Origin: Coralloluteibacterium stylophorae
GTDB lineage: Bacteria > Pseudomonadota > Gammaproteobacteria > Xanthomonadales > Xanthomonadaceae
Assembly (NCBI RefSeq): GCF_018122625.2
Contig: NZ_JAGQFT020000010.1
Coordinates: 1-64,000, forward strand
Reading direction: 5' to 3'
DNA: 64,000 nucleotides
Under the pieces are notes generated by a model. The model had not been told where the DNA came from. It made no database searches and saw only the letters and a list, made by a program, of their open reading frames with translations. A program made the position numbers and the translations under genes. This document shows, in pieces, positions 49,203 to 64,000 of the stretch (the stretch's first letter is position 1; every line of letters begins with the position of its first letter).

Positions 49203-51359
49203 ATGGCCCAACCGCATGCGGTCGAGGTGCTGCTGCGGCCAGCGGTGGAGCTTCATACCGTGGCGGTCTGCACCGGCGCCGCGATTCTGTGCCTGGTGGC
49301 ACCGTGGTCGCTCGCGCTGAATCCGCTGCTCGGCCTGGGCTCGGCGCTGGCCTTCCTGACCTTCGGCGCGATTCGCCTGCGCGATGCCTGGGCGATCCTG
49401 CGCTATCGCCGCAACATCCGCCGCCTGCCGCGCTACGTGATGACCAGCCGCGACGTGCCGGTGAGTCAGCAACGGCTGTTCGTCGGCCGGGGCTTTCGCT
49501 GGGAGCAGCGGCACACACACCGGCTGATGCAGACCTACCGGCCGGAGTTCCGCCGCTATGTCGAGCCGACGGCGATCTACCGGGCCGCCCGGCGGCTGGA
49601 GGAGCGGCTTGAGTTCGCGCCGTTTCCCGTCTCGACGCTGGCGCGCGCGCTGGCCTGGGACAGCCCGCTCAACCCGGCGCGGCCGCTGCCGCCGGTCGGC
49701 GGACTGCCGCGCCTGCATGGCATCGAGCCGGCCGAGGTCGATGTCACGCTGCCGCTGGGCGAGCGCGTCGGCCACACCCTGGTGCTGGGCACCACGCGCG
49801 TGGGCAAGACGCGGCTGGCCGAGCTGTTCATCACGCAAGACATCCGCCGCAAGGTCCGCGGCGAGCACGAGGTGGTGATCGTCTTCGATCCCAAGGGCGA
49901 TGCGGACCTGTTGAAGCGCATGTACGTCGAGGCCAAGCGTGCCGGGCGCGAAGGCGAGTTCTACGTCTTCCATCTGGGCTGGCCGGACATCTCGGCGCGC
50001 TACAACGCTGTGGGCCGGTTCGGGCGGATCTCCGAGGTGGCCACGCGCATCGCCGGACAGCTCTCGGGCGAAGGCAACAGCGCCGCGTTCCGCGAGTTCG
50101 CCTGGCGCTTCGTCAACATCATCGCGCGCGCCCTGGTCGAGCTGGGGCAGCGGCCGGACTACCTGCTGATCCAGCGCCACGTCATCAACATCGACGCGCT
50201 GTTCATCGAGTACGCCCAGCACTACTTCGCCAAGAACGAGCCGAAGGCTTGGGAGGTCATCGTCCAGCTCGAAGGCAAGCTGAACGACAAGAACATCCCG
50301 CGCAACATGATCGGGCGCGAGAAGCGCGTGGTGGCCCTCGAACAGTACCTGTCCCAAGTGCGCATCTATGACCCGGTGCTCGATGGCCTGCGCAGCGCCG
50401 TGCGCTACGACCGGACGTACTTCGACAAGATCGTCGCTTCGCTGCTGCCGCTGCTGGAGAAGCTCACCACCGGCAAGATCGCGCAACTGCTCGCACCGAA
50501 CTATTCCGACCTGTCCGACCCGCGGCCGATCTTCGACTGGATGCAGGTCATCCGCAAACGCGCGGTGGTCTACGTGGGGCTGGATGCGCTGTCCGACGCC
50601 GAAGTCGCGGCGGCGGTGGGCAACTCGATGTTCAGCGATCTGGTCTCGGTCGCCGGCCACATCTACAAGTTCGGCATCGACGACGGGCTGCCCGGCGCAG
50701 CGGTGGGCGCCAAGATTCCAATCAACGTCCACGCCGACGAATTCAACGAACTCATGGGCGACGAGTTCATTCCGATGGTCAACAAGGGCGGCGGTGCCGG
50801 CGTGCAGGTGACGGCCTACACGCAGACCTTGAGCGACATCGAGGCGCGCATCGGCAACCGCGCCAAGGCCGGCCAGGTGGTCGGCAACTTCAACAACCTG
50901 TTCATGCTGCGCGTGCGCGAGACCGCCACCGCCGAACTGCTGACGCGACAACTGCCCAAGGTCGAGGTGTACGCCACCGCACTGATGAGCGGCGCCACCG
51001 ACAGCTCCGACCCGCACGGCAATACCGCGTTCACGTCCAACACCCAGGACCGCATCAGCAGCAACAGCGTGCCGTTGATCGAGCCCGCGCATGTGGTGGC
51101 GCTGCCCAAGGGTCAGTGCTTCGCGCTGACCGAGGGCGGCAACATTTGGAAAGTCCGCATGCCGCTGCCGGCACCCGACCCCGACGAAGCCATGCCGAAG
51201 GATCTGCAGGAGCTGGCCGGCTACATGCGGCAGCACTACGTCGAGGCAGGAGACTGGTGGGAGAACCAAGGCATCCCCGGCCTGCAGGACAAGGCGCTGC
51301 CCGACGACCTGCTGGACGACTTCAAGCAGATGGCCGCGGCCGAAGAGGCCGAAGCATGA
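49203..51359 (+). CDS. traD: conjugative coupling protein TraD (SXT/TOL subfamily)
   Basis: This 718-aa VirD4-type ATPase links the relaxosome to the secretion channel at the inner membrane. Two TM helices lie in the first 65 residues (TVAVCTGAAILCLVAPW, LLGLGSALAFLTFGAI). Walker A GTTRVGKT is at 196-203 and the Walker B-like VVIVFDPKGD follows. HADEFNELMGDEF and the C-terminal QVTAYTQTLSDIEARIG match TIGR03743. Coupled to the TIGR03747 gene by ATGA. Confidence 0.95.
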   Translation: MAQPHAVEVLLRPAVELHTVAVCTGAAILCLVAPWSLALNPLLGLGSALAFLTFGAIRLRDAWAILRYRRNIRRLPRYVMTSRDVPVSQQRLFVGRGFRWEQRHTHRLMQTYRPEFRRYVEPTAIYRAARRLEERLEFAPFPVSTLARALAWDSPLNPARPLPPVGGLPRLHGIEPAEVDVTLPLGERVGHTLVLGTTRVGKTRLAELFITQDIRRKVRGEHEVVIVFDPKGDADLLKRMYVEAKRAGREGEFYVFHLGWPDISARYNAVGRFGRISEVATRIAGQLSGEGNSAAFREFAWRFVNIIARALVELGQRPDYLLIQRHVINIDALFIEYAQHYFAKNEPKAWEVIVQLEGKLNDKNIPRNMIGREKRVVALEQYLSQVRIYDPVLDGLRSAVRYDRTYFDKIVASLLPLLEKLTTGKIAQLLAPNYSDLSDPRPIFDWMQVIRKRAVVYVGLDALSDAEVAAAVGNSMFSDLVSVAGHIYKFGIDDGLPGAAVGAKIPINVHADEFNELMGDEFIPMVNKGGGAGVQVTAYTQTLSDIEARIGNRAKAGQVVGNFNNLFMLRVRETATAELLTRQLPKVEVYATALMSGATDSSDPHGNTAFTSNTQDRISSNSVPLIEPAHVVALPKGQCFALTEGGNIWKVRMPLPAPDPDEAMPKDLQELAGYMRQHYVEAGDWWENQGIPGLQDKALPDDLLDDFKQMAAAEEAEA

Positions 51360-52105: not shown

Positions 52106-52120
52106 ATCACTCCGGCTGTA

Positions 52121-52135
52121 GCAATTTAAAATTGC
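52121..52135. repeat. AT-rich palindrome at the ICE core/cargo junction
   Basis: GCAATTT-A-AAATTGC, 7-bp perfect arms, lies 15 bases after the TIGR03747 stop, just where base composition drops. It could be a terminator stem, a regulator site for the TIR operon or part of the insertion junction. Confidence 0.45.
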
Positions 52136-52212
52136 GGGGTTGCTTGCCTTCTTCGTTCAGACAGGCTCGCGCTTCGACAATCACGGTTGCTGCTGGAATC
52201 ACAAGGAAGAGC

Positions 52213-53355
52213 ATGACCGCCCTCTATCAACTTGCAGTGCTTGGTTCGCCAACCGATGCCCAGATTTCTGAGGTTGAAGAAGTCGTCGGAACTGCCGTAG
52301 GCATGTTCAACTTGCGACTAGGGCATGAAGTTGGATGGGAGGTGCGCCCGGAAGCGTTTAACCCCGACCAACAGCGCTCATCCGCTGCGGTATTTTTCGG
52401 AGGCGAGAATCCACCCCTTGCCAATGTGGCGAAGTTGCTGGAACGAGGCATCCCGTTACTGCCGATAGCGTCCGACGTCAATCGAGTTAGCGAAGAGATC
52501 CCTGAATTACTGCGACCTCTCAACTGCTTAGCCTATACGGCCAACGGACCACAGCGTGTCGCGACCGCTTTACTTGAGTGTGCGGGATTACTACCTCGCC
52601 AGCGTCGAGTATTTGTAAGCTACCGCCGCGGCGAAGCCCGTGATGCAGCCTTACAACTCTTCGATGCCTTGTCCGCTCGGCTATTCGATGTGTTTCTCGA
52701 TACACATGGGATTCCACCTGCGGAAGATTTTCAGACGATGCTGTGGCATCGCCTTTGCGATTCCGACGTTCTTGTCATGCTTGACACACCAGGCTACTTT
52801 GAAAGCCGATGGACAAGCGCAGAGTTCGGACGCGCTCTGGCGAAAGGCATTAGCGTCTTACGGGTTGGCTGGCCAGACTGCACGCCATCTGCGCGAACAG
52901 CCACCGCCAGTCGCGCAGAATTGTTGCCCGAAGAAGTGGATGCGGCCACAGGACGCCTCGCAGACAGCGCTGTGGAGCGAATCTGTCTACAGCTCGAAGA
53001 AGTTCGCAGCCAAAGCCATGCGGTCCGTTCCGTCAATCTAGTGAGCAATTTGCGCAACGCTATTCAAACGATTGGCGGCCAACTTGTCGGCGTTGGACCG
53101 AACAAGGCGGTCTATATCCGACTACCGGATGGCCGGAATGTCGTCGTCTACCCAACAGTTGGTGTCCCCACGTCGACCACGTTGCATGACGCATCCACCA
53201 ATTCGCCAGATCAATCGGTTGCCGTCGTTTACGATCATGTTGGCTTGCATCCCCGATGGCTGGGGCATTTGGACTGGCTGGGCCAGCATATCCACTCTGC
53301 GCGGTGGGTCAAAGCCAGCGAGGCTGGGTGGCAATTTGCGGACTGGGAGGTCTGA
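52213..53355 (+). CDS. TIR-domain defence protein
   Basis: This 380-aa protein has an N-terminal Rossmann-like domain (residues 1-125, AAVFFGGENPPLANVAKLLERGIPLLPIA). A TIR domain follows at about 131-225 (RVFVSYRRGEARDAALQLFDAL, FLDTHGIPPAEDFQ, SRWTSAEFGRAL). Trp200 and Glu204 form the W-x3-E pattern, with Glu204 the probable NAD+-cleaving residue. The C-terminal ~120 residues are unassigned. AAGGAAGA precedes the ATG. First gene of a TIR-SLOG-TIR operon. Lower GC than the ICE core, so it is acquired cargo. Confidence 0.85.
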   Translation: MTALYQLAVLGSPTDAQISEVEEVVGTAVGMFNLRLGHEVGWEVRPEAFNPDQQRSSAAVFFGGENPPLANVAKLLERGIPLLPIASDVNRVSEEIPELLRPLNCLAYTANGPQRVATALLECAGLLPRQRRVFVSYRRGEARDAALQLFDALSARLFDVFLDTHGIPPAEDFQTMLWHRLCDSDVLVMLDTPGYFESRWTSAEFGRALAKGISVLRVGWPDCTPSARTATASRAELLPEEVDAATGRLADSAVERICLQLEEVRSQSHAVRSVNLVSNLRNAIQTIGGQLVGVGPNKAVYIRLPDGRNVVVYPTVGVPTSTTLHDASTNSPDQSVAVVYDHVGLHPRWLGHLDWLGQHIHSARWVKASEAGWQFADWEV

Positions 53356-53358
53356 ATC

Positions 53359-53946
53359 GTGAGCGCAATCTTCCTTTCAGCCAGTGTCCCACTTGTCGGC
53401 CGCGGCTCGTATCACGAGACCGCCAATCCATTCCTCATCCAGTGCGCTGTGAGGGAACTGGTCATAGCCGTCATCCGTCAGCACAAGATTGTGTGGGGAG
53501 GCCATCCCGCTATTACGCCCATGATCTGGAGCATTTGTGAGGATTTGGGTGTCGATTATTCTGGGTCCGTGGTTCTGTATCAGAGCACGTTCTTCAAGGA
53601 CCGTTACCCGGAAGAAAACGACCGTTTTCACAATGTAGTCTTCACCAACGCAGTTGCCGGCGACAGGGATGCGAGCCTGCTGCTAATGCGGGAAGAAATG
53701 CTGTCGCGCGACGATCTCGTTGCCGCTGTTTTCATCGGCGGCATGGAAGGAGTGGAAGCCGAGCATGAACTCTTCAGGCAATTCCACCCCGCCGCCAAAG
53801 TTCTGCCCGTGCCATCGCCAGGCGGGGCAGCCCTGAACTTGGCCAAAGATCAAGGTTATTTCACCGACGTGGATCTTGGTGATATTGACTTTGCGCAACT
53901 CTTTCACACGCACCTCGCATTGAACATTCAAGGCGCAGCGAGCTGA
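53359..53946 (+). CDS. SLOG-like nucleotide-binding protein
   Basis: This 195-aa Rossmann-type protein starts SAIFLSASVP and has IVWGGHPAITPMIWSICEDLG, FTNAVAGDRDASLLLMREEML, AAVFIGGMEGVEAEHELF and LPVPSPGGAALNL. The glycine-rich loops and GGMEGVExE are typical of SLOG (SMF/LOG-like) domains that bind NAD-derived or nucleotide signals. GTG start, 3 bases after the TIR gene stop. In Thoeris the SLOG domain of ThsA senses the TIR-made cADPR isomer. Here it would be a free-standing sensor. The family call is by motif reading. Confidence 0.6.
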   Translation: MSAIFLSASVPLVGRGSYHETANPFLIQCAVRELVIAVIRQHKIVWGGHPAITPMIWSICEDLGVDYSGSVVLYQSTFFKDRYPEENDRFHNVVFTNAVAGDRDASLLLMREEMLSRDDLVAAVFIGGMEGVEAEHELFRQFHPAAKVLPVPSPGGAALNLAKDQGYFTDVDLGDIDFAQLFHTHLALNIQGAAS

Positions 53947-53987
53947 ATCTCCTCTGCCGATTCACACGAGCCAACGAAGGATTCGCC

Positions 53988-54473
53988 ATGCCACGGAAAG
54001 TCTTCTATAGCTTCCACTATCAACGCGACAGTTGGCGCGCTTCCAAGATACGGAATATCGGTGTTGTTGAGGGCAACCAGCCCGCAAGCGATAACAAATG
54101 GGAAGAAGTGAAGCGAGGTGGCGAGGCCGCAATCAAGCGATGGATTGACGATCAACTGCAAGGACGGACGTGCGCAATTGTTCTGGTCGGCGCCGAAACG
54201 GCGAATCGCCCCTGGATTCGATATGAAATTGAGCAGTCATGGAATAGTGGCAAGGGACTCTTGGGAATACGAGTCCATAAGCTGCTGGACCATAACCAGC
54301 AACCATCAGTTGCCGGGGCCAATCCGTTTGACGCATTTACCTTGAACGACGGTAGAAAGCTATCCACCGTCGTCCGCATGTACGATCCACCGGGGGCCAC
54401 CAGCAGCGCGGCCTATAACCACATCAGTGACAACCTATCGGGCTGGATTGAAGCGGCGATCGCTGCTCGCTAA
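53988..54473 (+). CDS. ThsB-like TIR protein (DUF1863)
   Basis: This 161-aa single-domain protein has RKVFYSFHYQRDSWRASKIRNIG, DNKWEEVKRGGEAAIKRWIDDQLQGRTCAIVLVGAETANRPWIRYEIEQSW and LLGIRVHKL, the classic ThsB/DUF1863 TIR-like fold. Trp76 and Glu80 give the W-x3-E pattern. In Thoeris such proteins detect infection and make the signal molecule from NAD+. ACGAAGGA precedes the ATG. Last gene of the operon, convergent with the UDG-like gene 16 bases away. Confidence 0.85.
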   Translation: MPRKVFYSFHYQRDSWRASKIRNIGVVEGNQPASDNKWEEVKRGGEAAIKRWIDDQLQGRTCAIVLVGAETANRPWIRYEIEQSWNSGKGLLGIRVHKLLDHNQQPSVAGANPFDAFTLNDGRKLSTVVRMYDPPGATSSAAYNHISDNLSGWIEAAIAAR

Positions 54474-54489
54474 GCAGCCCAGCCTCTCG

Positions 54490-55152
54490 TCAAAACAGCG
54501 ACCCAGTGCTCATGGGGTGCCCATATAGTTCCGAGATTTGCTTCTGGAACTGGGTCTGTCCTCCGTAGCTAGGATGCCTCACGCAAATCACGGGTACGGA
54601 ATCCGTGATGCGATGAGCCGCAGCGGCGGCATCGTTACCGATGGCGACGATACGCGAGGGGCGTAGCAAGACAATGAGCTGTTGGAGAAGTTCTTCGCCG
54701 GCTCGCCTCTCACGCGCGTTGTGCTGCCGGTTGGTGAAAGGATCTCCTGATTCATGCGGATGCAGAGGGAAAACGTTCCAGAGAAAGATGCGAGCATCAA
54801 TATGTTCCAGCATGCCCCATATGACCGCGGCGGTTCGTTCGGCCACAGCACTGCCTATCGTCGGCCGCTCGGCGACCTGGTCGAGATTCCAACGCCTAGC
54901 GTGCTGGCTTATGTGAACGTCGTCGGTCAGGGCTAACCCAGTGCGGCGTCCTCCGCGGTATCCGAGGTCTCGTCCGATCCATATCGCGTCTACGGGTTCC
55001 TCGGTTGCACGACGCAACATGGCGGACAGTGCAGCGGCACGGCGACGTGGTGCGTCGCGTCTATCATGAACTTCACAACAATCCGAATACGGATTGAAGC
55101 AGTCTTCGAACTGCAGCGAAGCAACTGCATCAACGAACGGGTGGATCTTCAT
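54490..55152 (-). CDS. uracil-DNA-glycosylase-superfamily protein
   Basis: This 220-aa protein has WIGRDLGYRGGRRTGLALTDD, RIFLWNVFPLHPHESGD, LLRPSRIVAIGNDAA and CVRHPSYGGQTQF. The N-x-x-P-L and the C-terminal HPS motif are those of UDG-superfamily enzymes. It may excise modified or uracil bases from invading DNA. It is the last gene of the long minus-strand defence operon and starts in an ATGA overlap with mazG. Confidence 0.75.
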   Translation of the reverse strand: MKIHPFVDAVASLQFEDCFNPYSDCCEVHDRRDAPRRRAAALSAMLRRATEEPVDAIWIGRDLGYRGGRRTGLALTDDVHISQHARRWNLDQVAERPTIGSAVAERTAAVIWGMLEHIDARIFLWNVFPLHPHESGDPFTNRQHNARERRAGEELLQQLIVLLRPSRIVAIGNDAAAAAHRITDSVPVICVRHPSYGGQTQFQKQISELYGHPMSTGSLF

Positions 55153-56285
55153 TTTTCAGACTCAAGTGGCATGTATTTGATGGTGCGTTGTTCTCGGTTT
55201 CCAATGATCCAGCCACCTTGATTTGCCTTGAGCTGGCGAAAGACAGCATAGCCATCCAGGATTGCCTTTTCCCAGAGCTTTAGCGGACATTTCTCCACTT
55301 CGTAACCACTCACGAACTCACCAATGGTCTTGAGAAACCCAAGTGAGACCTTTTCCTGGTTCTCGAAGAAATTCAGCTCCTTGGCCCTGGAGAAAATCCA
55401 CGCTGAAAGCCCTTCCTCCACGACGATGGCCCGACCACTGTCCTGCTCTTCATCGTATTTCGGATTGCTCTTTCGCTTGTGCTTGATCAATGCCCGCATC
55501 ACAGGCGACCAGTGCAGGATTGCGGCATAAGCAAAGTGGAAGACATCATGGAACCGGTAGCCATCGCGATCGGCAATGTTGTCCGTCAGAGGGTCTCCGA
55601 TGAATACACCCTTCCATTGGAGATAACTCTTGCCGCTGCCTCGCTGATTGACCCGGATTTTGAAATCCCTGGGCAGTTGTTCCTCAATTCCAAACTCACT
55701 GTCGAAATCAAGGCCAGCCAGGTCTTCTGCCTGCGGCTCCAAGAATGCGCCGCGAGCTTTCCGGAGATTTCCGCGAGCCACCTCCGAAAACGCAAGCTCG
55801 GCCGCGTGGATTGCATCCAGATAGGCCCGTGCGAAAGCAATCAAGTCTGCACGTGCAGGCGTGCTTCCCAGTAGGGCCGCCGCTGACTGCCCCAAACGCA
55901 CCAAGGTGGCATCCAACGAAGCAGTCACGGCGACGGGCACAGCGATATAGGCTAACGCACCTTCGGTGATGTCACTTGCAGCGCCCACATTCTTAAAGTT
56001 TCCGTGGTTCGCAGCTTCCGCGAAGATCTCTTCAAGAGGAATCTGCAGGCGCCTGCAGATTGCGGCCAAATACCAGAGGGTGTCGCCAAACTCCTCTTCT
56101 GCTGCCTTCTTGAAACCAGGGTAAGCCGTTCTCTCTCGAACATTTTTCTTGGCCGTAGCCATTATTCCGCCGACTTCTCCGTATAGACCTTGGAGGACAG
56201 GGTTGAAGTCATTCGGGTTGAGTACGTCTGTGGCTGCAATTTCCGCAGCGTAATCCGAGAGCAAGAGGGAGCCTTCCTTTTTCAT
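55149..56285 (-). CDS. MazG-like nucleotide pyrophosphohydrolase with extra C-terminal domain
   Basis: This 378-aa protein has an N-terminal MazG fold (GLYGEVGGIMATAKKNVRERTAYPGFKKAAEEEFGDTLWYLAAICRRL, with Glu37, Glu63-65 and Asp68 as the metal site). A helical middle and a conserved C-terminal domain at about 200-378 follow (FHDVFHFAYAAILHWSPVMRALIKHKRKSN, RAIVVEEGLSAWIFSRAKELNFF). MazG proteins hydrolyse (d)NTPs or alarmones, so it may deplete nucleotides or remove modified dNTPs. Overlaps the UDG-like gene. Confidence 0.8.
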   Translation of the reverse strand: MKKEGSLLLSDYAAEIAATDVLNPNDFNPVLQGLYGEVGGIMATAKKNVRERTAYPGFKKAAEEEFGDTLWYLAAICRRLQIPLEEIFAEAANHGNFKNVGAASDITEGALAYIAVPVAVTASLDATLVRLGQSAAALLGSTPARADLIAFARAYLDAIHAAELAFSEVARGNLRKARGAFLEPQAEDLAGLDFDSEFGIEEQLPRDFKIRVNQRGSGKSYLQWKGVFIGDPLTDNIADRDGYRFHDVFHFAYAAILHWSPVMRALIKHKRKSNPKYDEEQDSGRAIVVEEGLSAWIFSRAKELNFFENQEKVSLGFLKTIGEFVSGYEVEKCPLKLWEKAILDGYAVFRQLKANQGGWIIGNREQRTIKYMPLESEK

Positions 56286-56288
56286 CGG

Positions 56289-56915
56289 TCACCTACGAAG
56301 AGTCAGCCATTCGAATGGAGCGCCCTGATAACCGCTCACGTTAAAGCTGCGAATCCATTGCTCAAGGTTCGCAATCAGTTGCGCATCGTCAAAGGTGGTT
56401 AGGCCTCTTCCTGTTTTGCATAGAGGCCGATCTTGCTGGTCCTTCAGTTCCTCGGGAAACTCCGGACCCTCTCCCCCGAAATACACAAAATCATTACTGA
56501 TCAGAACCCTATTGACGCCCGTATCACGGGCGACATGGTCCGGGTTGAGCGTGCCATTGAGGCGGGAGTGAAATGAGTCTCGCTGCTGCCAGGCAGCTCC
56601 AGGCACGGCCCTGAAGTAGATGTTGTCTCCGCAACTTTGCTTCCGACTTCCATTGCGGTACGGCTTCTTGTATTCAAACCGTGGATCTGCGCCGTATTCG
56701 TCAAATGTCATCGCCTCGGTAACGCGCATCGCGTACACGAGACGCCCGCCACGTCGGACAGTTCTATCATTGCTGCCACTGCCGACCACCCAATCACCGA
56801 TGTCAGCGGATCGGCGGATATTGGGTTTGCAGGTCGCAAGCGTGCAGTAGCCATAGAAAGGATTGGGTGCGAAACCACTGTCGTATCGCACCACATAGGA
56901 GTGAATGCGAGCCAT
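56289..56915 (-). CDS. Nmad2-type nucleotide-modification-associated protein
   Basis: This 208-aa protein has ARIHSYVVRYDSGFAPNPFYGYCTLATCKPNIRRSADIGDWVVGSGS, RLVYAMRVTEAMTFDEYG and NRVLISNDFVYFGGEGPEFP, fitting the Nmad2 domain. That domain was defined by its link to DNA-base modification and conflict systems. Its chemistry is unknown. Its start shares one base with the stop of the upstream TIR-like gene (TGATG), and mazG follows 3 bases later. Confidence 0.72.
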   Translation of the reverse strand: MARIHSYVVRYDSGFAPNPFYGYCTLATCKPNIRRSADIGDWVVGSGSNDRTVRRGGRLVYAMRVTEAMTFDEYGADPRFEYKKPYRNGSRKQSCGDNIYFRAVPGAAWQQRDSFHSRLNGTLNPDHVARDTGVNRVLISNDFVYFGGEGPEFPEELKDQQDRPLCKTGRGLTTFDDAQLIANLEQWIRSFNVSGYQGAPFEWLTLRR

Positions 56916-57382
56916 CAGCAGGGATGCCGCATGAGTGGAACCGGGTCGCAGGCGCCGCCGTCAGGCTTTTCCCACGAGTCCTTCCCATTGATCGCGTCAA
57001 TGATTGCATCGCCGTTCCACCCAACCAAGGCGTCGGCATACTCTTTCAGGGCATCCGGGAGGTCGCATTCCTTCTCACCATGCTCCCAAACACCAACAAT
57101 GCGCTTGCCCTGTTTGGCCGCATACTCAATTTCCCAGTTCACCCAGTCGCTGTTCTTGGTCTGGGGGGAGACGTAGCAAATGAACACTCCGGCCCAGTTG
57201 ATCGCAGGGGCAAGGATCTGCGTCTTTATGTAGTGCTCATCGGAAGCATTGTTGAACTTTCCTGTATGGATGGAGGAATCCCTGATTTCCATCCCATTTG
57301 GAGCCAACAGATCCTTGAGCTTTTGGAGCCCGTGATCGTCCTTATGGACATGGCTGATAAACACATTCCTTTTCTCTGTCAC
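56915..57382 (-). CDS. second ThsB-like TIR protein
   Basis: This 155-aa single-domain TIR-like protein has RNVFISHVHKDDHGLQKLKDLL, IKTQILAPAINWAGVFICYVSPQTKNSDWVNWEIEYAAKQGKRIVGVW and DALVGWNGDAIIDAI. Trp80 and Glu84 repeat the W-x3-E pattern of the other two TIR proteins in this island. Its start is inside the ATGA that ends res, so its translation is tied to the restriction subunit. Confidence 0.82.
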   Translation of the reverse strand: MTEKRNVFISHVHKDDHGLQKLKDLLAPNGMEIRDSSIHTGKFNNASDEHYIKTQILAPAINWAGVFICYVSPQTKNSDWVNWEIEYAAKQGKRIVGVWEHGEKECDLPDALKEYADALVGWNGDAIIDAINGKDSWEKPDGGACDPVPLMRHPC

Positions 57383-60300
57383 CTGTCACCTCCAAGGTTT
57401 TCATATGATCTGAAGATCGCAGCCGATTCAGCCAAAAGGTCGATGACAGAACGCTCGACCACGTAGCGTGCCGGATTCTCGCCAACCGCCAGCGCCTCAA
57501 AATGCGCCTCGCCACAGGCGATTTTTGCGCGCTCCTTGTTGCGCAGGTCGTCAGTGAACAGGCTGCCCTTGGTCTCCACCACGAAGTAAAGACGCTGCGC
57601 GCCGTCTTCCTCCACCAGCACGGCCCAGTCGGGGTTGTAGCTGCCCAGTGGCGTGGGCACCTTGAACCAGCCGGGCAGCTTGGCGTAGAGCTTAATGGCG
57701 TCGTTCTTCTCAAGCGCATCGGCAAAGTCGCGCTCGGTTGTCGAGTCATAGACCACGTGCTCGTAGATGGACTTTTCAGTGTCCATCAGCATGTCCTTGA
57801 GATAGCCGGTCAGCTCCTCCTGATCGAACAGTTCCTGGGCATAGAAATGTTCGTCGCCCAGCTTTTGGTACTTGATGCCATCCACCAGCGCCAGGCGCTT
57901 GCAGCGGTTGATGGTCTCGGCGGTCAGCTCGATGAACTGCTGCGGGTTGCGCTTGAAGTCGTCCAGCCGCCCGCTGCCGCTCAGGATGGTGGCGATGCTC
58001 CGGCGGGTGAGTTGGGTGCGATCCTGGAGGTCGGTGAGCAGGTCCGGCAGCTCGACGTCCGTCTCGTCCAGGACGACAGTTGCCGCGCCCGCTTTCTCCG
58101 TGGCCTCCACCCCTGCCTTGCCGATGGCGATGTCGGCCTTGCGCCATTGCAGCCGGGCCTTGGGGATGGCCGGGGCTTGTCGAAGCGAATCGATGCAGTT
58201 CTGGATCAGCTTGTCATTATCGAACTGCACCCGATAGGTCGTCTTGTGCTTGATGCGATCCCACAGCTCCTTGAACTCGGGGCTGAGATAGACGCCCTTG
58301 CGCACGGCAACCTGCTTGCGCTCGTCGGCGTTCTTGATTTCCAGACGGCCCGACACCTTGCGCAGCACCTCGGCGATTTGACTGCGCTGCGCGTCGAACT
58401 CCGCAGGTAGCGCCAGGGTTCCATCCTTTAACGCCGTCTTCAGCGAGTCCTGCACCTTGCCCTTGGCGTCGATGTGTCCCGCAGCCTTCAAGTGCTCCCA
58501 TAGCACCTTCGACTGTTCGACACCCAGGGGCACGGTTTGGCCATCGGCCGCCGTCACGGCGATAGCAGCGAACTGGTGTTGCTCGACGATGCCAAAGCGG
58601 ATGCCGGTGTCGGCCTCTATCTCCTTCTGCAGGTTCTCGGCGAACTGCTCGTAGTTCTCGGTGGCGATCACGGTCAGGGTGTTGACCTCGAAGCCCCGCA
58701 CACGCTCACCGTGCTGATTCACGCACAAACGCAATCCGCGGCCGATGGTCTGACGACGTTCGCGCTCGGTCTGAATGTCGCGCAGGGTGCAAATCTGGAA
58801 GACGTTGGGGTTGTCCCAGCCTTCCTTCAGGGCCGAATGGGAGAAAATGAACTTGAGCGATGTGTCGAAGGACAGCAGCTTTTCCTTCTCCTTCATGATC
58901 AGGTTGTAGGCGCGCTCGGCATTCTCGCGGTTGCCCGCATTGTTCTCTGCGGTATCTGTCCAGCCACCTTTCTTGTCGATGGAGAAGTAGCCGTTGTGTA
59001 CTTCCTCTGCAGCGGAGTCCAGGTCGATCTCGGCGAAGAGGCTCTGGTAGGCCGGCAGCTTGGCGGCACGCCGATACTCCTTTTCAAAGATGCGGGCGTA
59101 GTCACCTTTGACCGTATTGCCGTCCGCGTCGTACTGGCGGTACCTGTCCACCGCATCGATGAAAAAAAGCGATAGAACCTTGATACCCAGCGGCCGCAGG
59201 CGCTTTTCCTTGTCCAGATGCTCGCGAATCGTGCGACGGATCATTTCGCGTTGCACGGCCAGCGCATCCACGTCACCGTGGGCTTGGCCCGGCTTCAAGA
59301 AAACTTCTCCACCGGGGTAACGCAGCTCCATGAACTCGTCGCCCCTGGCCGTGTTGATCTCGCCGACGCGAAAATCGGCATAGATCGGACGCTTGGCAAG
59401 CTGCTCCAGGTCGTCACCATCGGATACGACGAGCTCCTGCCGCTTCACACCGCTGGCGGTGGCCACATCCAGTTCGACCCTGGCACTGATGGTCCCGCGC
59501 TTGTTGGCCACCGATATCAACCGCACGAAGGGTTTGTTGTGCGCATCCTCCACCGTCGCCGAGGCCACCTCGATCTGTTTGACCAGTTTTCGCTCGTAGG
59601 CATCGACTGCGTCGAGGCGAAATACCATGTGGTGCTTGTCCACATGGGTCGCGGAATATCGCAGGGTGCAGAGTGGATTCATCGCATCCAGAGCCTCTTT
59701 GCCGCGCCCCTCGAGGCCACCATCCACACTCTGGGGTTCGTCCACGATGACGATGGGCCGGGTCGCCTTGATCAGGTCGATGGGCTTCTCTCCGCCGGTC
59801 TTCTCGCTGTCCTTGTAGAGGTTGTTGACGTCCTTCTTGTTGATGGCGCCCACTGTCACCACCATGACTTGGATGTTCGAGCTGGTGGCAAAGTTGCGCA
59901 CCTGCCCGAGCTTGTTGGAGTCGTAGAGGAAGTAGTCGAAGGGCACCCCGGCGTAGAGTCCCTTGAAGTGGTCTTCGGTGATCTGCAGGGTCTTGTAGAC
60001 GCCTTCCTTGATCGCGACCGACGGCACCACGATGACGAACTTGGTGAAGCCGTAGCGCTTGTTCAGCTCGAAGATCGTGCGCAGGTAGACGTAGGTCTTG
60101 CCGGTGCCGGTTTCCATTTCCACGGTGAAGTCGCCGGAAGTCAGCGCGCCGGAGGGCGGCAGGCCACCACGCAACTGGATGTCCGCCAGATTCCTGAGAA
60201 GCTCGTCGTCAAGCAGGGTCAGTCGGTTGCCAACGCCCAGATCCGACTCGGCCATGCCCAGCGTCATTTGCTCAGGCTGGGTCCCGGGAAACAGGTCCGA

Positions 60301-60432
60301 TCCCACCGGCATCGGCGCCTTCATCGTCACCGTGAACTCGGTGCGGCACACCTCCTGGCCACGGAACAGGTCGCACACGGCCGCAATGGCCTGCATCTGG
60401 TAGTCGAGGTTGGGCTCGAAGTGAAGTTTCAT
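57379..60432 (-). CDS. res: type III restriction enzyme Res subunit
   Basis: This 1017-aa SF2 helicase-endonuclease has Walker A METGTGKT at 106-113, the DExx box DEPQ at 231-234 and motif VI QTIGRGLRL from 561. A C-terminal PD-(D/E)XK nuclease has Asp935 (NPDWAVL) and Glu953/Lys955 (VETKG). The start is the ATG before KLHFEPNLDYQMQAI, with AGGGAGGT 6 bases upstream. With Mod it cleaves DNA lacking methylation after ATP-driven translocation or switching. Its stop is coupled to a TIR-like gene. Confidence 0.92.
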   Translation of the reverse strand: MKLHFEPNLDYQMQAIAAVCDLFRGQEVCRTEFTVTMKAPMPVGSDLFPGTQPEQMTLGMAESDLGVGNRLTLLDDELLRNLADIQLRGGLPPSGALTSGDFTVEMETGTGKTYVYLRTIFELNKRYGFTKFVIVVPSVAIKEGVYKTLQITEDHFKGLYAGVPFDYFLYDSNKLGQVRNFATSSNIQVMVVTVGAINKKDVNNLYKDSEKTGGEKPIDLIKATRPIVIVDEPQSVDGGLEGRGKEALDAMNPLCTLRYSATHVDKHHMVFRLDAVDAYERKLVKQIEVASATVEDAHNKPFVRLISVANKRGTISARVELDVATASGVKRQELVVSDGDDLEQLAKRPIYADFRVGEINTARGDEFMELRYPGGEVFLKPGQAHGDVDALAVQREMIRRTIREHLDKEKRLRPLGIKVLSLFFIDAVDRYRQYDADGNTVKGDYARIFEKEYRRAAKLPAYQSLFAEIDLDSAAEEVHNGYFSIDKKGGWTDTAENNAGNRENAERAYNLIMKEKEKLLSFDTSLKFIFSHSALKEGWDNPNVFQICTLRDIQTERERRQTIGRGLRLCVNQHGERVRGFEVNTLTVIATENYEQFAENLQKEIEADTGIRFGIVEQHQFAAIAVTAADGQTVPLGVEQSKVLWEHLKAAGHIDAKGKVQDSLKTALKDGTLALPAEFDAQRSQIAEVLRKVSGRLEIKNADERKQVAVRKGVYLSPEFKELWDRIKHKTTYRVQFDNDKLIQNCIDSLRQAPAIPKARLQWRKADIAIGKAGVEATEKAGAATVVLDETDVELPDLLTDLQDRTQLTRRSIATILSGSGRLDDFKRNPQQFIELTAETINRCKRLALVDGIKYQKLGDEHFYAQELFDQEELTGYLKDMLMDTEKSIYEHVVYDSTTERDFADALEKNDAIKLYAKLPGWFKVPTPLGSYNPDWAVLVEEDGAQRLYFVVETKGSLFTDDLRNKERAKIACGEAHFEALAVGENPARYVVERSVIDLLAESAAIFRSYENLGGDR

Positions 60433-60578
60433 GGCGTACCTCCCTGTACGCCACCCTGCGGGCAGCCTTCGGCTGTGCAAAACGGCTGTCCTGCCGTTTT
60501 GTCATGCGTACCTCCCTGTACGCCACCCTGCGGGCGCACTGGCGCGCGTGCAAATTCCCTATCCTGATAATTTGTCAT
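60429..60578 (-). CDS. 49-aa mini-ORF between mod and res
   Basis: The small open frame encodes MTNYQDREFARAPVRPQGGV and ends PQGGVQGGTP. The peptide motif PQGGVQGGT occurs twice because the DNA is a tandem repeat. It starts 11 bases after mod and its TGA overlaps the res start codon (ATGA), exactly as a translational-coupling leader would. Whether the peptide itself acts is unknown. Confidence 0.45.
   Translation of the reverse strand: MTNYQDREFARAPVRPQGGVQGGTHDKTAGQPFCTAEGCPQGGVQGGTP
60433..60578 (-). repeat. two tandem 73-base start-codon/Shine-Dalgarno units
   Basis: Units 60506-60578 and 60433-60505 (minus strand) both begin ATGACAAA, share TTTGCAC, and end with the same 29-base block containing CAGGGAGGTACGC. 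Each unit therefore carries an ATG and ends with a strong Shine-Dalgarno for the ATG that follows. Since 73 is not a multiple of three, copy-number change would shift frame. Confidence 0.85.
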
Positions 60579-60588
60579 AGCGGCACCA

Positions 60589-62508
60589 TCACAGACTGCG
60601 CACGTTCTGGATGCCGTGCTGCTCCAGAATGGCGGCGAGGTTGGTCTTGGCGACATCGTTTTCAAAGGCGCTGTCGCGGAACACGCAGGTCGTGTCACCG
60701 GCGGGCGCCAGTTCCTTGTGCCAGTCGATGATGCCTTGGGCCAGCGGCTCCACCTGCTTAGCCGTAATCCGCTCGGCAAGGCAGGCCATCAGCACGCCGC
60801 CACCCACGGAATGCACCTCACGGCTCGCGATGGTGCGCTGCTCGATGGGCACGCACAGGTCGAGGCCGAGCTTGAGCAACAGCTCAAATAGCAAGTCGGC
60901 CTCCGAGCGACCTTCGAGCAAATGATCTTGGTGGTCGAACAACGAGGCTTCCAGATCCGCCGGGTTGGGGTTCCAGGCGCGGATATTGGAGTGGTCCAGC
61001 TTGAAGACGCGGAAGCCGATATCGCCGGTAAACAGCGGGTTGTCGGCTTTGATCTTGGTTGCGGCGCGGCGCAGGCGTTCTTTGGTGAGTTCGGCGATGT
61101 TGCGGGGCTTGCCGAGTTGATCGCAGAACTCGGCGGCGGCCTTCTGCTCTTTGGTTTCGGGGTCAAGCGGCTCGGGAAGCTGGACCAGCACATATGAGCG
61201 CTGCCCGCCATCGACGGCATTCTGAGCCATCACGGAGTGCCCACTGGTACCCGAGCCTGCAAAGAAGTCGAGGACGATTGCGTCCGATCCGCTACCTATC
61301 GCTGCAATGGTTTTAAGAAGTTTCGTCGGCTTCGGGTTGCTGAAGTATTCGCCACCCATCAAATCTCGAACTTCGGTGCTGCCGGTCCGGGTGCGCCCGA
61401 ACCGCTCATCAACCAGTAGCGAGCGCGGCTTTCCGCCGGGTTTCTCGTAATTCTTGGTGTATACATGTCCGTCCTTGAAAACAAGCGAATCCATATTGTT
61501 CTTGACCTTGTCCTTTGACCAACGCCAGATGGCATTGGGTCGCGTTTGATCACGGTGCTCCAACTTGTAAATCGTTCCATCAGGTCCAACAAGGTCGTAG
61601 TCCATCGAGCTGGAATACTGCAAATTTTGCTTATCAAGGCGCTCCAGCGAGTAGCGACCGTGTTCGTCCTCGTTGTTGTATGTCGTGGTTGCAACTGCAT
61701 CAGGGTCAAGGCCGACGATGTTGTCAGTCCTCTCGCGCGAGAAACAAACGACATATTCATGATCGACGGCCACTTCACCGCTGTCGTTCGCACCACCAGA
61801 CTTGCTTTTCCAGATGAATGACGCAATGTGGTTTTCTTCACCAAAGACTTCGCTACAGGCCTTGATCAGATTGTCGATTTCTTTATCGTCGATCGAAATG
61901 AAGATCACGCCATCTTTGCGAAGAAGATTTCGCGCCAGCTTCAAGCGCGGATACATCATATTGAGCCAGTCCGTGTGAAAGCGCCCCGACGCTTCGGTGT
62001 TCGAACTGATCTTGCGCCCGCCCTCCACCTGCCCGGTCAGTTCCAAATAGTTCTTGATGTTGTCCTGGAAGTTGTCCGGGTACACAAAGTCCTTGCCGGT
62101 GTTATAGGGCGGGTCGATATAGATGAGCTTGACCTTGCCGACATAGCTTTTTTGCAGCAGCTTGAGCACTTCGAGGTTGTCGCCCTCGATCATCAGGTTC
62201 TGAGTGGTGTCCCAATCCACGCTCTCGTCCGGACAGGGGCGCAGAGTGCCGGTACTCGGTGTCAGCGCCAATTGCCGGGCGCGGCGCTTGCCGTGCCAGT
62301 TGAGTCCGTATTTCTCGTCGGCATCGGTGACGGTCTGGTCACCCACCAGCGCCTTGAGCACATCCACATTCACCGCCGTGCCGTTCGGGCCTTCAGTAAT
62401 GAGCTCCGGGAATAGGGCCTTGAGCTGGTCGATGTTGCCCGCCACCAGATCGGTGGACTGGGCCAGGTGGCTTGCGGCGTCGATGATCTGCATCTGCTTC
62501 TCCATCAT
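60589..62508 (-). CDS. mod: type III adenine methyltransferase Mod
   Basis: This 639-aa beta-class N6-adenine methyltransferase has motif IV DPPYNTG at 132-138 and the SAM motif DFFAGSGTS from 414. The intervening ~280 residues include the variable target-recognition region (about 220-370). It methylates one strand of an asymmetric site and confers specificity on Res. The ATG at 62508 (MMEKQM) was chosen. The ATG at 62496 has a better Shine-Dalgarno and is possible. Confidence 0.92.
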   Translation of the reverse strand: MMEKQMQIIDAASHLAQSTDLVAGNIDQLKALFPELITEGPNGTAVNVDVLKALVGDQTVTDADEKYGLNWHGKRRARQLALTPSTGTLRPCPDESVDWDTTQNLMIEGDNLEVLKLLQKSYVGKVKLIYIDPPYNTGKDFVYPDNFQDNIKNYLELTGQVEGGRKISSNTEASGRFHTDWLNMMYPRLKLARNLLRKDGVIFISIDDKEIDNLIKACSEVFGEENHIASFIWKSKSGGANDSGEVAVDHEYVVCFSRERTDNIVGLDPDAVATTTYNNEDEHGRYSLERLDKQNLQYSSSMDYDLVGPDGTIYKLEHRDQTRPNAIWRWSKDKVKNNMDSLVFKDGHVYTKNYEKPGGKPRSLLVDERFGRTRTGSTEVRDLMGGEYFSNPKPTKLLKTIAAIGSGSDAIVLDFFAGSGTSGHSVMAQNAVDGGQRSYVLVQLPEPLDPETKEQKAAAEFCDQLGKPRNIAELTKERLRRAATKIKADNPLFTGDIGFRVFKLDHSNIRAWNPNPADLEASLFDHQDHLLEGRSEADLLFELLLKLGLDLCVPIEQRTIASREVHSVGGGVLMACLAERITAKQVEPLAQGIIDWHKELAPAGDTTCVFRDSAFENDVAKTNLAAILEQHGIQNVRSL

Positions 62509-62519
62509 TTGTTCGATCT

Positions 62520-63323
62520 TCAAAGCTGTTCGCGTGCTGCAGCCAGTTGGACCAGCACGCGCTTGAGCGCGAGGTTCAGTTCCACCTGCCGCGCCAGTTG
62601 TTTTTCTTTGGCCGCCAGCGTGCGCAAACGGGTCGCCTCGGTTTCCAACCGCGCGCATTCCTGCAGAGCATGGCGACGGATTGCGGCCTGCTCGGGGCCG
62701 TCGGCCGCTTTGAACATCCCGGTCAGCTTCGCCGCCAACAGCGCCTGCGCGCTATCCATCCACCCCTGATACAAGGCGAAAAGTGAGGATCGTGGCTGGC
62801 GAGTCAAGGCGATGGCCTGAACAAATGCGTTCAACGCGTCGAGAGACGGCGCGTCCTCGGGCAACGACATGGACACCATGTCGCTATCCAGCACCACTTT
62901 GCTCGCTTCGTTCTGTGCCCAGCGCTTATGTGCCAAAGAGAGCGTCATGCTCTGTCCGGAGTACAGCAGCAACAGCACCGGATAGGGGACCGCACGGTGC
63001 ACCAGTTCGGCGAGGCGGGCGGCGTTCGCTGGCCTGATTTTGTCTTGCGCGGGCTGGCTTCGCAGCGTCACAGCAAGCACCGCGACCTCTAGATACTCGC
63101 GCAACTCGTCGCGGTAGTCAGGCACGCCGACGGTGTTCGGCTTGAGCGCCGCGACCCACTGTATCTCCTCGACGGTATTGGCGATCAGTCGCTTGTCGGC
63201 AGCCGTGGGGGCTCCGTTCTCCAGCAGCAGCTTCTTCGGCACGCGCTGATCGACTCGGCAGCCGTCGGGCAGACCAAGCGAGGCGATGAATCCTGGTACG
63301 TCCAGCAGCATGGTTCGCGTCAC
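62520..63323 (-). CDS. DUF4391 protein of the restriction operon
   Basis: This 267-aa protein has LPDGCRVDQRVPKKLLLENGAPTAADKRLIANTVEEIQWVAALKPNTVGV and YLEVAVLAVTLRSQP, the DUF4391 pattern, and a coiled C-terminus (RLETEATRLRTLAAKEKQLARQVELNLALKRVL). DUF4391 genes commonly sit before mod in type III-like systems, and their function is unknown. It is coupled to the S8 gene upstream by ATGA and ends 11 bases before mod. Confidence 0.78.
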   Translation of the reverse strand: MTRTMLLDVPGFIASLGLPDGCRVDQRVPKKLLLENGAPTAADKRLIANTVEEIQWVAALKPNTVGVPDYRDELREYLEVAVLAVTLRSQPAQDKIRPANAARLAELVHRAVPYPVLLLLYSGQSMTLSLAHKRWAQNEASKVVLDSDMVSMSLPEDAPSLDALNAFVQAIALTRQPRSSLFALYQGWMDSAQALLAAKLTGMFKAADGPEQAAIRRHALQECARLETEATRLRTLAAKEKQLARQVELNLALKRVLVQLAAAREQL

Positions 63324-64000
63324 ACCCTCGCACGAGCACGCGCCTGGACGCGGGCTTCAAGCACGGCGCGGACATGGGCGTAGAGCTGGGCATTCGCCTG
63401 CTCGCGGTCGGCGAGCACCGCAGCGAGCGCATAGGGTTCTTCGCCATCGCGGCCGTTCGACCATGGGCTGTCCTGGCGAGTCACCACCACGAAGACCTTG
63501 TTGCCGTTCGTAAGCGCCTGTTTGAATCTCCAGCGAGAAACCTGCAACGTGCCGTTCTTGCGTGCGTCGTTGGACAGCCAGCGACCGTTGCTGCGCTCTC
63601 CCATGCCTTGCTCACGGTTCCGACGGAAAGCCTGTGTCACCTCGTCCAGGCCACTTGCTGTAACTACGGAGAACCACAGCTTGCTCATGCGGTAGTCCAG
63701 CCGCGTGGTACGGACGGCTGGACTGTGCGCCAGGGCAACCGTTATCTCCCGCGTACGGCGGCCGCCCGCCCAGAAGCTGTCAGGCAGCGGCAGCTCGAAA
63801 AAATGGTGTTGGTCGTTGCCGATGCGCTCTTCGGTCAGCAAGGTGACGGTGTGGTCCAACGACCGAAAGAGGGCAGCATCCTCTACACACCCATAGCCGA
63901 TCAGACGCAGCAGCTTGTCGCGCCCTTCACCGTTGCCGTCGGGGTTGAGCAAGCTCTCGCAGGCTTGCGGCCAGCCGGCATGCGCGCCGATCAACGCACG
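63320..64000 (-). CDS. C-terminal part of a subtilisin-like (S8) defence protein, cut by window edge
   Basis: About 226 C-terminal residues are present and the frame is open to the window end. The visible start, RALIGAHAGWPQACES, looks like the last helix of a subtilase domain. KLLRLIGYGCVEDAALFRSLDHTVTLL, FFELPLPDSFW and REITVALAHSPAVRTTRLDY follow, as in the C-terminal jelly-roll of phage-defence S8 peptidases (IetS type). The catalytic Asp/His/Ser would lie outside the window. It overlaps DUF4391 by ATGA. Confidence 0.6.
   Translation of the reverse strand, partial: RALIGAHAGWPQACESLLNPDGNGEGRDKLLRLIGYGCVEDAALFRSLDHTVTLLTEERIGNDQHHFFELPLPDSFWAGGRRTREITVALAHSPAVRTTRLDYRMSKLWFSVVTASGLDEVTQAFRRNREQGMGERSNGRWLSNDARKNGTLQVSRWRFKQALTNGNKVFVVVTRQDSPWSNGRDGEEPYALAAVLADREQANAQLYAHVRAVLEARVQARARARV

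What the first reader, a model, noticed from the sequence alone, without database searches (positions are those of the whole stretch)
54490..64000. One long overlapped operon fusing S8-DUF4391-Mod-Res with TIR-Nmad2-MazG-UDG
Nearly all junctions on the minus strand overlap or nearly touch: S8/DUF4391 ATGA, DUF4391/mod 11 bases, mini-ORF/res ATGA, res/TIR ATGA, TIR/Nmad2 TGATG, Nmad2/mazG 3 bases, mazG/UDG ATGA. Type III restriction, an IetS-like protease, an NAD+-cleaving TIR candidate, a nucleotide-modification-associated protein, a nucleotide pyrophosphohydrolase and a base-excision enzyme would thus be made together. The separate families are known in phage conflict. I know of no described system with this combination. 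A model: Mod/Res handles unmodified DNA, while Nmad2/MazG/UDG act on phages with modified bases and the TIR protein provides abortive suicide.
Basis: partly seen in the sequence, partly recalled or inferred. Interest (0 to 1): 0.9.

Follow-up and report, generated by a model that had tools for sequence, protein, structure and literature searches.

The report
TIR–Nmad2–MazG–UDG cassette behind restriction genes
What looked like one giant operon is three separate, probably anti-virus, gene cassettes stacked in a mobile element; the interesting one is a widespread, untested seven-gene cassette that appears to link detection of chemically modified viral DNA to an immune alarm signal.

Summary
The tightly packed minus-strand genes are real. 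The reading of them as one S8–DUF4391–Mod–Res–TIR–Nmad2–MazG–UDG system is not. Three modules are stacked in the cargo slot of an ICE: IetA–IetS, inserted in SNF2–DUF4391–Mod–Res, followed by a self-contained 5.2-kb module (52,114–57,419). It recurs at 83–95% DNA identity in other bacteria without res. Of the 80 loci most like the window's Nmad2, 74 have TIR1–Nmad2, 47 the contiguous four genes and one (Accumulibacter) has res upstream. In that locus and here, the last 13 Res residues are encoded by what elsewhere is the cassette's non-coding leader, so the res/TIR1 overlap is a fusion scar. Nmad2 models as an EVE/ASCH/YTH-like fold (weak individual hits). The base-enzyme slot holds UDG or a 5-hmdU-DNA-kinase relative, rarely both; some kinase loci add thymidylate-synthase-, TMP-kinase- or dCTP-deaminase-like genes. 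Best model: defence that recognises modified (probably thymine/uracil-type) phage bases or nucleotides and raises an NAD+-derived TIR/SLOG alarm. Anatomy is well supported; function is inferred. Parts were predicted as defence domains before, none validated.

The parts
52114..57419 (.). Whole self-contained module (unit of DNA homology shared with other genera)
   Evidence: blastn 88-95% identity over this interval in L020, L023, L024, L025; 52225-57381 in L011/L026; a same-order genome, G1034, at 83%
52213..53355 (+). TIR2: 380-aa protein with TIR_2 domain; ThsB-type model PDLC00434; putative catalytic Glu conserved
53359..53946 (+). SLOG cluster 3 protein (LD_cluster3), putative nucleotide sensor/processor; GGMxGxxxE motif invariant
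   Evidence: PF18180 E=2.6e-79; conservation
53988..54473 (+). TIR3: ThsB-type TIR (PDLC00433)
54490..55152 (-). UDG-superfamily glycosylase; conserved GRDLGYRGGRRTG, WNVFPLHP and RHPSYGG motifs
   Evidence: PF03167 E=1.8e-7; alignments; weak SMUG1 and family-4 UDG hits
55149..56285 (-). MazG-type NTP pyrophosphohydrolase domain (E37, E65, D68) plus MazG_C
   Evidence: PF18722 E=8.9e-83; hmmsearch to MazG 2q73 E=2.4e-5 and DCTPP1 5e-4; model and Foldseek
56289..56915 (-). Nmad2; predicted remote EVE/ASCH/YTH (PUA-like) fold, putative modified-base reader
   Evidence: PF18753 E=4.4e-75; AF2 pLDDT 94.5; Foldseek PDB and BFVD
56915..57382 (-). TIR1: ThsB-type TIR (PDLC00418 over its full 155 aa); WE84 conserved
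57379..57419 (-). Fusion scar: cassette leader and RBS reused as the last 13 Res codons plus stop
   Evidence: homology to stand-alone leaders ends at 57419 in L020-L024 and L049; same scar in L025; unrelated C-termini in free Res
57379..60432 (-). Type III restriction Res (separate module)
   Evidence: PF19778, PF04851, PDLC03647
60589..62508 (-). Type III Mod methyltransferase (separate module)
   Evidence: PF01555, PDLC03634
62520..63323 (-). DUF4391 protein (separate module)
   Evidence: PF14335 E=3.2e-73
63320..64000 (-). 3' part of IetS S8 protease; full gene C10:63320-65650, then IetA and the SNF2 helicase
   Evidence: PDLC02198 1203 bits on the full protein; IetA PDLC02196; SNF2 C3a139/DrmD-like

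Best explanation
Shown: the interval is a stack of three separately mobile cassettes in the cargo slot of an SXT/TOL/clc-type ICE: IetAS, inside SNF2-DUF4391-Mod-Res, followed by a self-contained seven-gene module (TIR1-Nmad2-MazG-UDG convergent with TIR2-SLOG-TIR3). The res/TIR1 overlap is a recombination scar. Inferred: the seven-gene module is an anti-phage system in which Nmad2 (an EVE/ASCH-like reader) and UDG recognise and excise a modified base in phage DNA, most likely a 5-substituted uracil/thymine, and the MazG protein destroys the matching modified dNTP or prepares the signal. TIR1 converts detection into an NAD+-derived nucleotide or NAD+ loss. The TIR2-SLOG pair (with TIR3) receives or amplifies that signal and arrests the cell, as in Thoeris. 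In other genomes a SLOG-patatin, a patatin or a SIR2-SLOG ThsA near the cassette may act as an extra effector. In this genome the four-gene arm has lost most of its usual upstream region and probably depends on read-through from res.
For: Module as a unit: DNA homology 52114-57419 in Cupriavidus, Vreelandella, Halomonas, Accumulibacter and Tistrella and 83% in a same-order genome. Core: TIR1-Nmad2 in 74/80 loci, contiguous TIR1-Nmad2-MazG-UDG in 47/80, Res in 1/80. TIR+SLOG pair within 10 kb in 43/80 loci, in all three orientations, whereas LD_cluster3 occurs in only 1 of 368 other sampled genomes of the class. Pairwise-identity correlations r=0.79-0.94 among TIR1/Nmad2/MazG/UDG, 0.98 for TIR2/SLOG, 0.28-0.51 between them, i.e. 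two cohesive, exchangeable modules. Base chemistry: UDG and an HMUDK_hel protein nearly exclusive (2 loci with both; Fisher p=1e-7); thymidylate-synthase-, TMP-kinase- and dCTP-deaminase-like genes in related loci. Nmad2 fold. Active-site residues conserved; dN/dS 0.03-0.10 for six genes versus a same-order copy (SLOG synonymous sites saturated). Precedent: Brig1, Brig3-BapA and Brig2 (modified thymine) in PMC11078745 and PMC13160076.
Against: No experiment shows defence. No Foldseek hit for Nmad2 reaches E<0.001 (best 0.07 PDB, 0.003 BFVD). UDG substrate unknown; it shows no significant PDB relative. The MazG first motif is ExxG rather than ExxE. No SIR2-STALD ThsA and no SLOG-patatin found in this genome, so the effector is unclear. 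8 of 44 loci with at least 20 kb held have the cassette without any detected TIR/SLOG/patatin partner. The 80 loci are the best matches to the window's Nmad2 and not a random sample; many are MAG contigs cut short.
Confidence: 0.5

Rival explanations
1. One reading: Res/Mod and TIR-Nmad2-MazG-UDG form one integrated system made from one operon.
For: Physical GTGA overlap; the composite exists in two genera, with 88.7% identity continuous through the junction; Res under purifying selection (dN/dS 0.07).
Against: res beside the cassette in 1 of 80 loci; both halves recur alone; the junction is a scar that replaced the Res C-terminus.
Confidence: 0.06
2. Ordinary multi-ThsB Thoeris: the three TIRs serve a ThsA, and Nmad2, MazG and UDG are passengers.
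For: All three TIRs match PADLOC ThsB models; SIR2-STALD ThsA next to the cassette in L012, L039, L042, L043.
Against: STALD above cut-off in only 5 of 34 cassette genomes or records tested and absent from this genome; Nmad2 follows TIR1 in 74/80 loci, not as a passenger.
Confidence: 0.15
3. Nucleotide-pool alarm: MazG/MazG_C and Nmad2 sense modified dNTPs made by the phage, and UDG only cleans up misincorporated bases; TIR1 is triggered by the free nucleotide, in the manner of Kongming (named from memory).
For: MazG/DCTPP1-type domain; dCTP-deaminase-, TMP-kinase- and TS-like partners.
Against: An EVE/ASCH-like Nmad2 and strictly conserved UDG motifs point to DNA; no ligand known.
Confidence: 0.17
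4. Not defence: a DNA-repair or base-modification cassette (for example self-marking of an element's DNA by a thymine derivative) that rides with TIR islands.
For: Thymidylate-synthase-like and HMUDK-like 'writer' genes in some loci; a phage contig with Nmad2 next to TS- and deaminase-like genes.
Against: No writer in the UDG lineage, to which the window belongs; constant TIR1 linkage; location on ICEs, plasmids, satellites and beside other defence genes.
Confidence: 0.12

Closest known systems
Thoeris (ThsB TIR + ThsA SIR2-SLOG or TM-macro)
   Same: ThsB-type TIRs with conserved catalytic Glu, often several per locus; SLOG-domain partner; mobile defence-island setting.
   Different: No ThsA in this genome; SLOG is a stand-alone cluster 3 protein; TIR1 is bound to Nmad2-MazG-UDG/HMUDK, which is not part of described Thoeris.
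Brig1/Brig2/Brig3(-BapA) DNA-glycosylase defence
   Same: UDG-superfamily enzyme in a defence island; operonic helper enzyme; modified phage bases as target (Brig2: modified thymine).
   Different: Usually with MazG_C and TIR1-Nmad2 here; no PDB sequence match; substrate unknown; predicted alarm arm.
MazG / MazG-C / NMAD / UDG predicted defence domains (DefensePredictor, Science 2026; Burroughs 2015 cited there)
   Same: The same domain types predicted as defensive; none validated.
   Different: The main text of that paper does not mention TIR, SLOG or the UDG/HMUDK alternation; Burroughs 2015 and Iyer 2013 could not be read (not held), so earlier description of part of this association is possible.
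EVE/ASCH/YTH PUA-like readers (e.g. VcaM4I)
   Same: Predicted fold of Nmad2; VcaM4I (6yex) is among the Foldseek hits.
   Different: Nmad2 has long insertions and its own invariant core (DxGFAPNPF...C...ATCKP); no significant single match.
Type III RM with SNF2-DUF4391, and IetAS
   Different: Independent modules, not part of the TIR cassette.

Membership tests
Thoeris | ThsB-type TIR protein | tested here: met
   PF08937 for TIR1 and TIR3; PDLC00418, PDLC00434, PDLC00433
Thoeris | ThsA effector (SIR2-SLOG) | tested here: not met
   No STALD in own genome; the same search finds it in W02, G381, G386, G388, G389
Thoeris | ThsA of TM-macro type | not tested
   No such gene recognised beside the module; the genome was not searched for it
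Thoeris | TIR produces an NAD+-derived signal | not testable with these tools
   Only conservation of the catalytic Glu
Brig-type glycosylase defence | UDG-superfamily domain and motifs | tested here: met
   PF03167 over cut-off; motifs conserved in 44 sequences
Brig-type glycosylase defence | Sequence relationship to Brig1/2/3 | not tested
   Brig sequences not held; no significant PDB match
Brig-type glycosylase defence | Excises a modified phage base | not testable with these tools
   Needs biochemistry
MazG NTP pyrophosphohydrolase | All-alpha domain with ExxE...ExxD | tested here: inconclusive
   Profile hits to MazG and DCTPP1; E37, E65, D68 invariant but the second Glu of motif 1 is Gly
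EVE/ASCH/YTH (PUA-like) reader | PUA-like fold | tested here: inconclusive
   Most of the top PDB hits are EVE, ASCH or YTH; best E 0.069, TM up to about 0.48; BFVD likewise ASCH/EVE
One Res+TIR operon (reader) | Recurrent linkage of Res with the TIR block | tested here: not met
   1 of 80 loci
IetAS | Paired IetA AAA ATPase and IetS S8 protease | tested here: met
   PDLC02196 345 bits, PDLC02198 1203 bits; below the NCBIfam equivalog cut-offs

The most novel reading that the evidence does not exclude
A broad family of immune systems in which a fixed TIR1-Nmad2 core (alarm enzyme plus modified-base reader) is combined with exchangeable enzymes of modified-thymine metabolism (UDG eraser, or 5-hmdU-DNA kinase with thymidylate-synthase-, TMP-kinase- or dCTP-deaminase-like partners) and exchangeable TIR-SLOG relays. 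NAD+-based immune signalling would thereby be gated by the chemistry of DNA bases.
Probability: 0.4. Interest if true: 0.85.

Novelty: new variant of a known kind. Interest (0 to 1): 0.66.

Why it matters
It separates a misleading giant operon into its modules and exposes a widely distributed, experimentally untested system: 450 Nmad2 relatives in one scan of about 85,000 species genomes, 74 of the 80 closest with TIR1. If the model holds, TIR/NAD+ immunity would have a base-modification-sensing branch, making testable how bacteria answer phages that hide behind hypermodified thymine or uracil. The res fusion scar also shows how overlapping operons in defence islands can arise by one recombination, a warning against inferring function from ATGA-type overlaps.

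Tried and rejected
Phage records with Nmad2 by tblastn: none. E. coli genomes: no close DNA match to the window region and none to the satellite version L106. Solved structures by single sequence: nothing for Nmad2 and nothing significant for UDG or MazG. MazG_C fold search: no credible match for the C-terminal domain. NCBIfam: no equivalog for UDG, MazG, Nmad2 or TIR1. The key predictive papers (NAR 2013 gkt573, NAR 2015 gkv1267) are not held. Sigma-70 scans gave no more than shuffled sequence and were not used. Considered and rejected: the cassette as a res-dependent unit; Nmad2/MazG/UDG as chance passengers of Thoeris.
Full report
OBSERVATION. Two overlaps are GTGA rather than ATGA. The same-strand run continues beyond the window through IetA to an SNF2 helicase at C10:69901. 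The flanks are genes of an integrating conjugative element: TraD 49203-51359 and TIGR03747 51356-52105 on the left, TIGR03746, 3749, 3752 and TraC on the right. The whole block is therefore ICE cargo.

A MISSED ARM. On the plus strand, converging on UDG with a 16-nt gap, lie TIR2 (52213-53355), a SLOG cluster 3 protein (53359-53946) and TIR3 (53988-54473). All three TIRs match different PADLOC ThsB models.

THE REAL UNIT. blastn of the contig against loci from other genera gives one shared block, 52114-57419: 95% in Cupriavidus KF708 (52193-57419), 92% in Vreelandella and Halomonas, 90% in Tistrella plasmid pTM3 (52225-57381), 89% in Accumulibacter; a same-order genome, G1034, has it at 83%. 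In several stand-alone copies, upstream of TIR1 there is a tyrosine integrase and/or a RelE/HTH pair, not res. Against a same-order copy, dN/dS is 0.03-0.10 for six of the seven genes; synonymous sites of SLOG were saturated.

RES IS INCIDENTAL. Of the 80 loci most similar to the window's Nmad2 (450 relatives found in about 85,000 species genomes), 74 have TIR1-Nmad2, 47 have contiguous TIR1-Nmad2-MazG-UDG, and one (L025, Accumulibacter) has Res. The Mod/Res operon with DUF4391 and SNF2 recurs without the TIR block (G1001). In L025 and here the last 13 residues of Res (TIFKPCENFGGDR and AIFRSYENLGGDR) are encoded by DNA that in stand-alone cassettes is the non-coding leader and ribosome-binding site of TIR1; free Res proteins end differently. 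One recombination therefore most likely joined res to the cassette, created the overlapping stop and removed most of the usual upstream region. L025 lacks IetA-IetS between SNF2 and DUF4391, so IetAS appears to be a further insertion here.

WHAT DOES RECUR. A TIR+SLOG pair lies within 10 kb of the cassette in 43/80 loci (TIR2+LD_cluster3 in 19, a different TIR+LD_cluster2 pair in 24, never both), co-directional, divergent or convergent. LD_cluster3 was found in only 1 of 368 other genomes sampled from the class. Pairwise-identity correlations are 0.79-0.94 within TIR1/Nmad2/MazG/UDG, 0.98 for TIR2/SLOG, 0.28-0.51 between TIR1, Nmad2, MazG or UDG and the TIR2/SLOG pair, and 0.41-0.73 with TIR3: two cohesive, mutually exchangeable modules. 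Additional neighbours are a SLOG-patatin (9 loci), another patatin (7), and SIR2-STALD ThsA in a few. STALD exceeds the cut-off in 5 of 34 cassette genomes or records and not in this genome. A TIR2-SLOG-SLOG-patatin-TIR island without Nmad2 exists in G272, so that arm can stand alone too.

BASE CHEMISTRY. UDG is present in 52 loci and an HMUDK_hel protein (Pfam: 5-hmdU DNA kinase, helical domain) in 18, with only 2 having both (Fisher p=1e-7; lineage effects not removed). Kinase-type loci include thymidylate-synthase-like (L143, L098, L080, L094), TMP-kinase-like and dCTP-deaminase-like genes. A phage contig carries Nmad2 next to TS-like and deaminase-like genes; the latter call is by eye. MazG's first 90 residues match MazG and DCTPP1 pyrophosphatases, with E37, E65 and D68 invariant. 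Nmad2 was modelled at pLDDT 94.5; most of its top PDB neighbours are EVE, ASCH or YTH domains, with none significant alone (best E 0.069), and the viral library independently gives ASCH/EVE proteins. I read this as a remote PUA-like modified-base reader, not as proof.

MECHANISM (inferred). Nmad2 and UDG act on a modified phage base; MazG acts on the matching nucleotide; TIR1 raises an NAD+-derived alarm; TIR2-SLOG (with TIR3) relays it. Precedents are Brig1, Brig2 (modified thymine) and Brig3-BapA (PMC11078745, PMC13160076) and Thoeris (PMC11204291). Rough likelihoods: separate modules 0.97; anti-phage role 0.75; modified base or nucleotide as trigger 0.55; the full scheme 0.3-0.4.

NOVELTY. 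DefensePredictor (PMC13092281) lists MazG, MazG-C, NMAD and UDG among predicted, unvalidated defence domains and cites Burroughs 2015, which I could not read. The TIR1-Nmad2 core, its alternation of UDG with HMUDK, and its linkage to exchangeable TIR-SLOG pairs were not found in any paper I could search or read. I file it as a new variant of a known kind.

Noticed in passing
window 57379-57419; L025:9497-9537: Gene-fusion scar: non-coding cassette leader turned into the Res C-terminus and stop codon.
   Followed up: yes
window 60429-60578: Mini-ORF between mod and res contains two copies of an about 30-nt direct repeat (GCCCGCAGGGTGGCGTACAGGGAGGTACGC type), seen by eye.
   Followed up: no
L143:8753-12404: Sinorhizobium chiapasense TIR1-Nmad2 locus with thymidylate-synthase-like, TylF-type O-methyltransferase and HMUDK_hel genes: a possible bacterial thymine-modification pathway.
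   Followed up: partly
L104:7528-10573: Phage contig (tail-like genes) with TS-like, deaminase-like and Nmad2 genes side by side just before a polymerase/exonuclease-like gene.
   Followed up: partly
L101:9499-12589: TIR1-Nmad2 followed by an HMUDK_hel-like and a radical-SAM-like gene (annotation by eye).
   Followed up: no
L106:7718-10594; L102:1140-4007: MazG-UDG-Nmad2 set in a satellite-like contig (primase and integrase) and in an inovirus-like prophage (Zot), each with a small unclassified gene beside Nmad2, in the usual TIR position.
   Followed up: partly
L015-L018: MazG-UDG pairs on Bradyrhizobium, Burkholderia and Sphingomonas plasmids beside a conserved HTH - ImmA/I42 - C1 peptidase - hypothetical cluster, without TIR1 or Nmad2.
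   Followed up: no
L141:1889-7947: SLOG-patatin, TIR2, SLOG and several further TIR genes without Nmad2/MazG/UDG: a stand-alone TIR-SLOG-patatin island.
   Followed up: partly
L094:818-2866: Natural fusion of the alternative TIR with SLOG cluster 2 in one 682-aa protein.
   Followed up: yes
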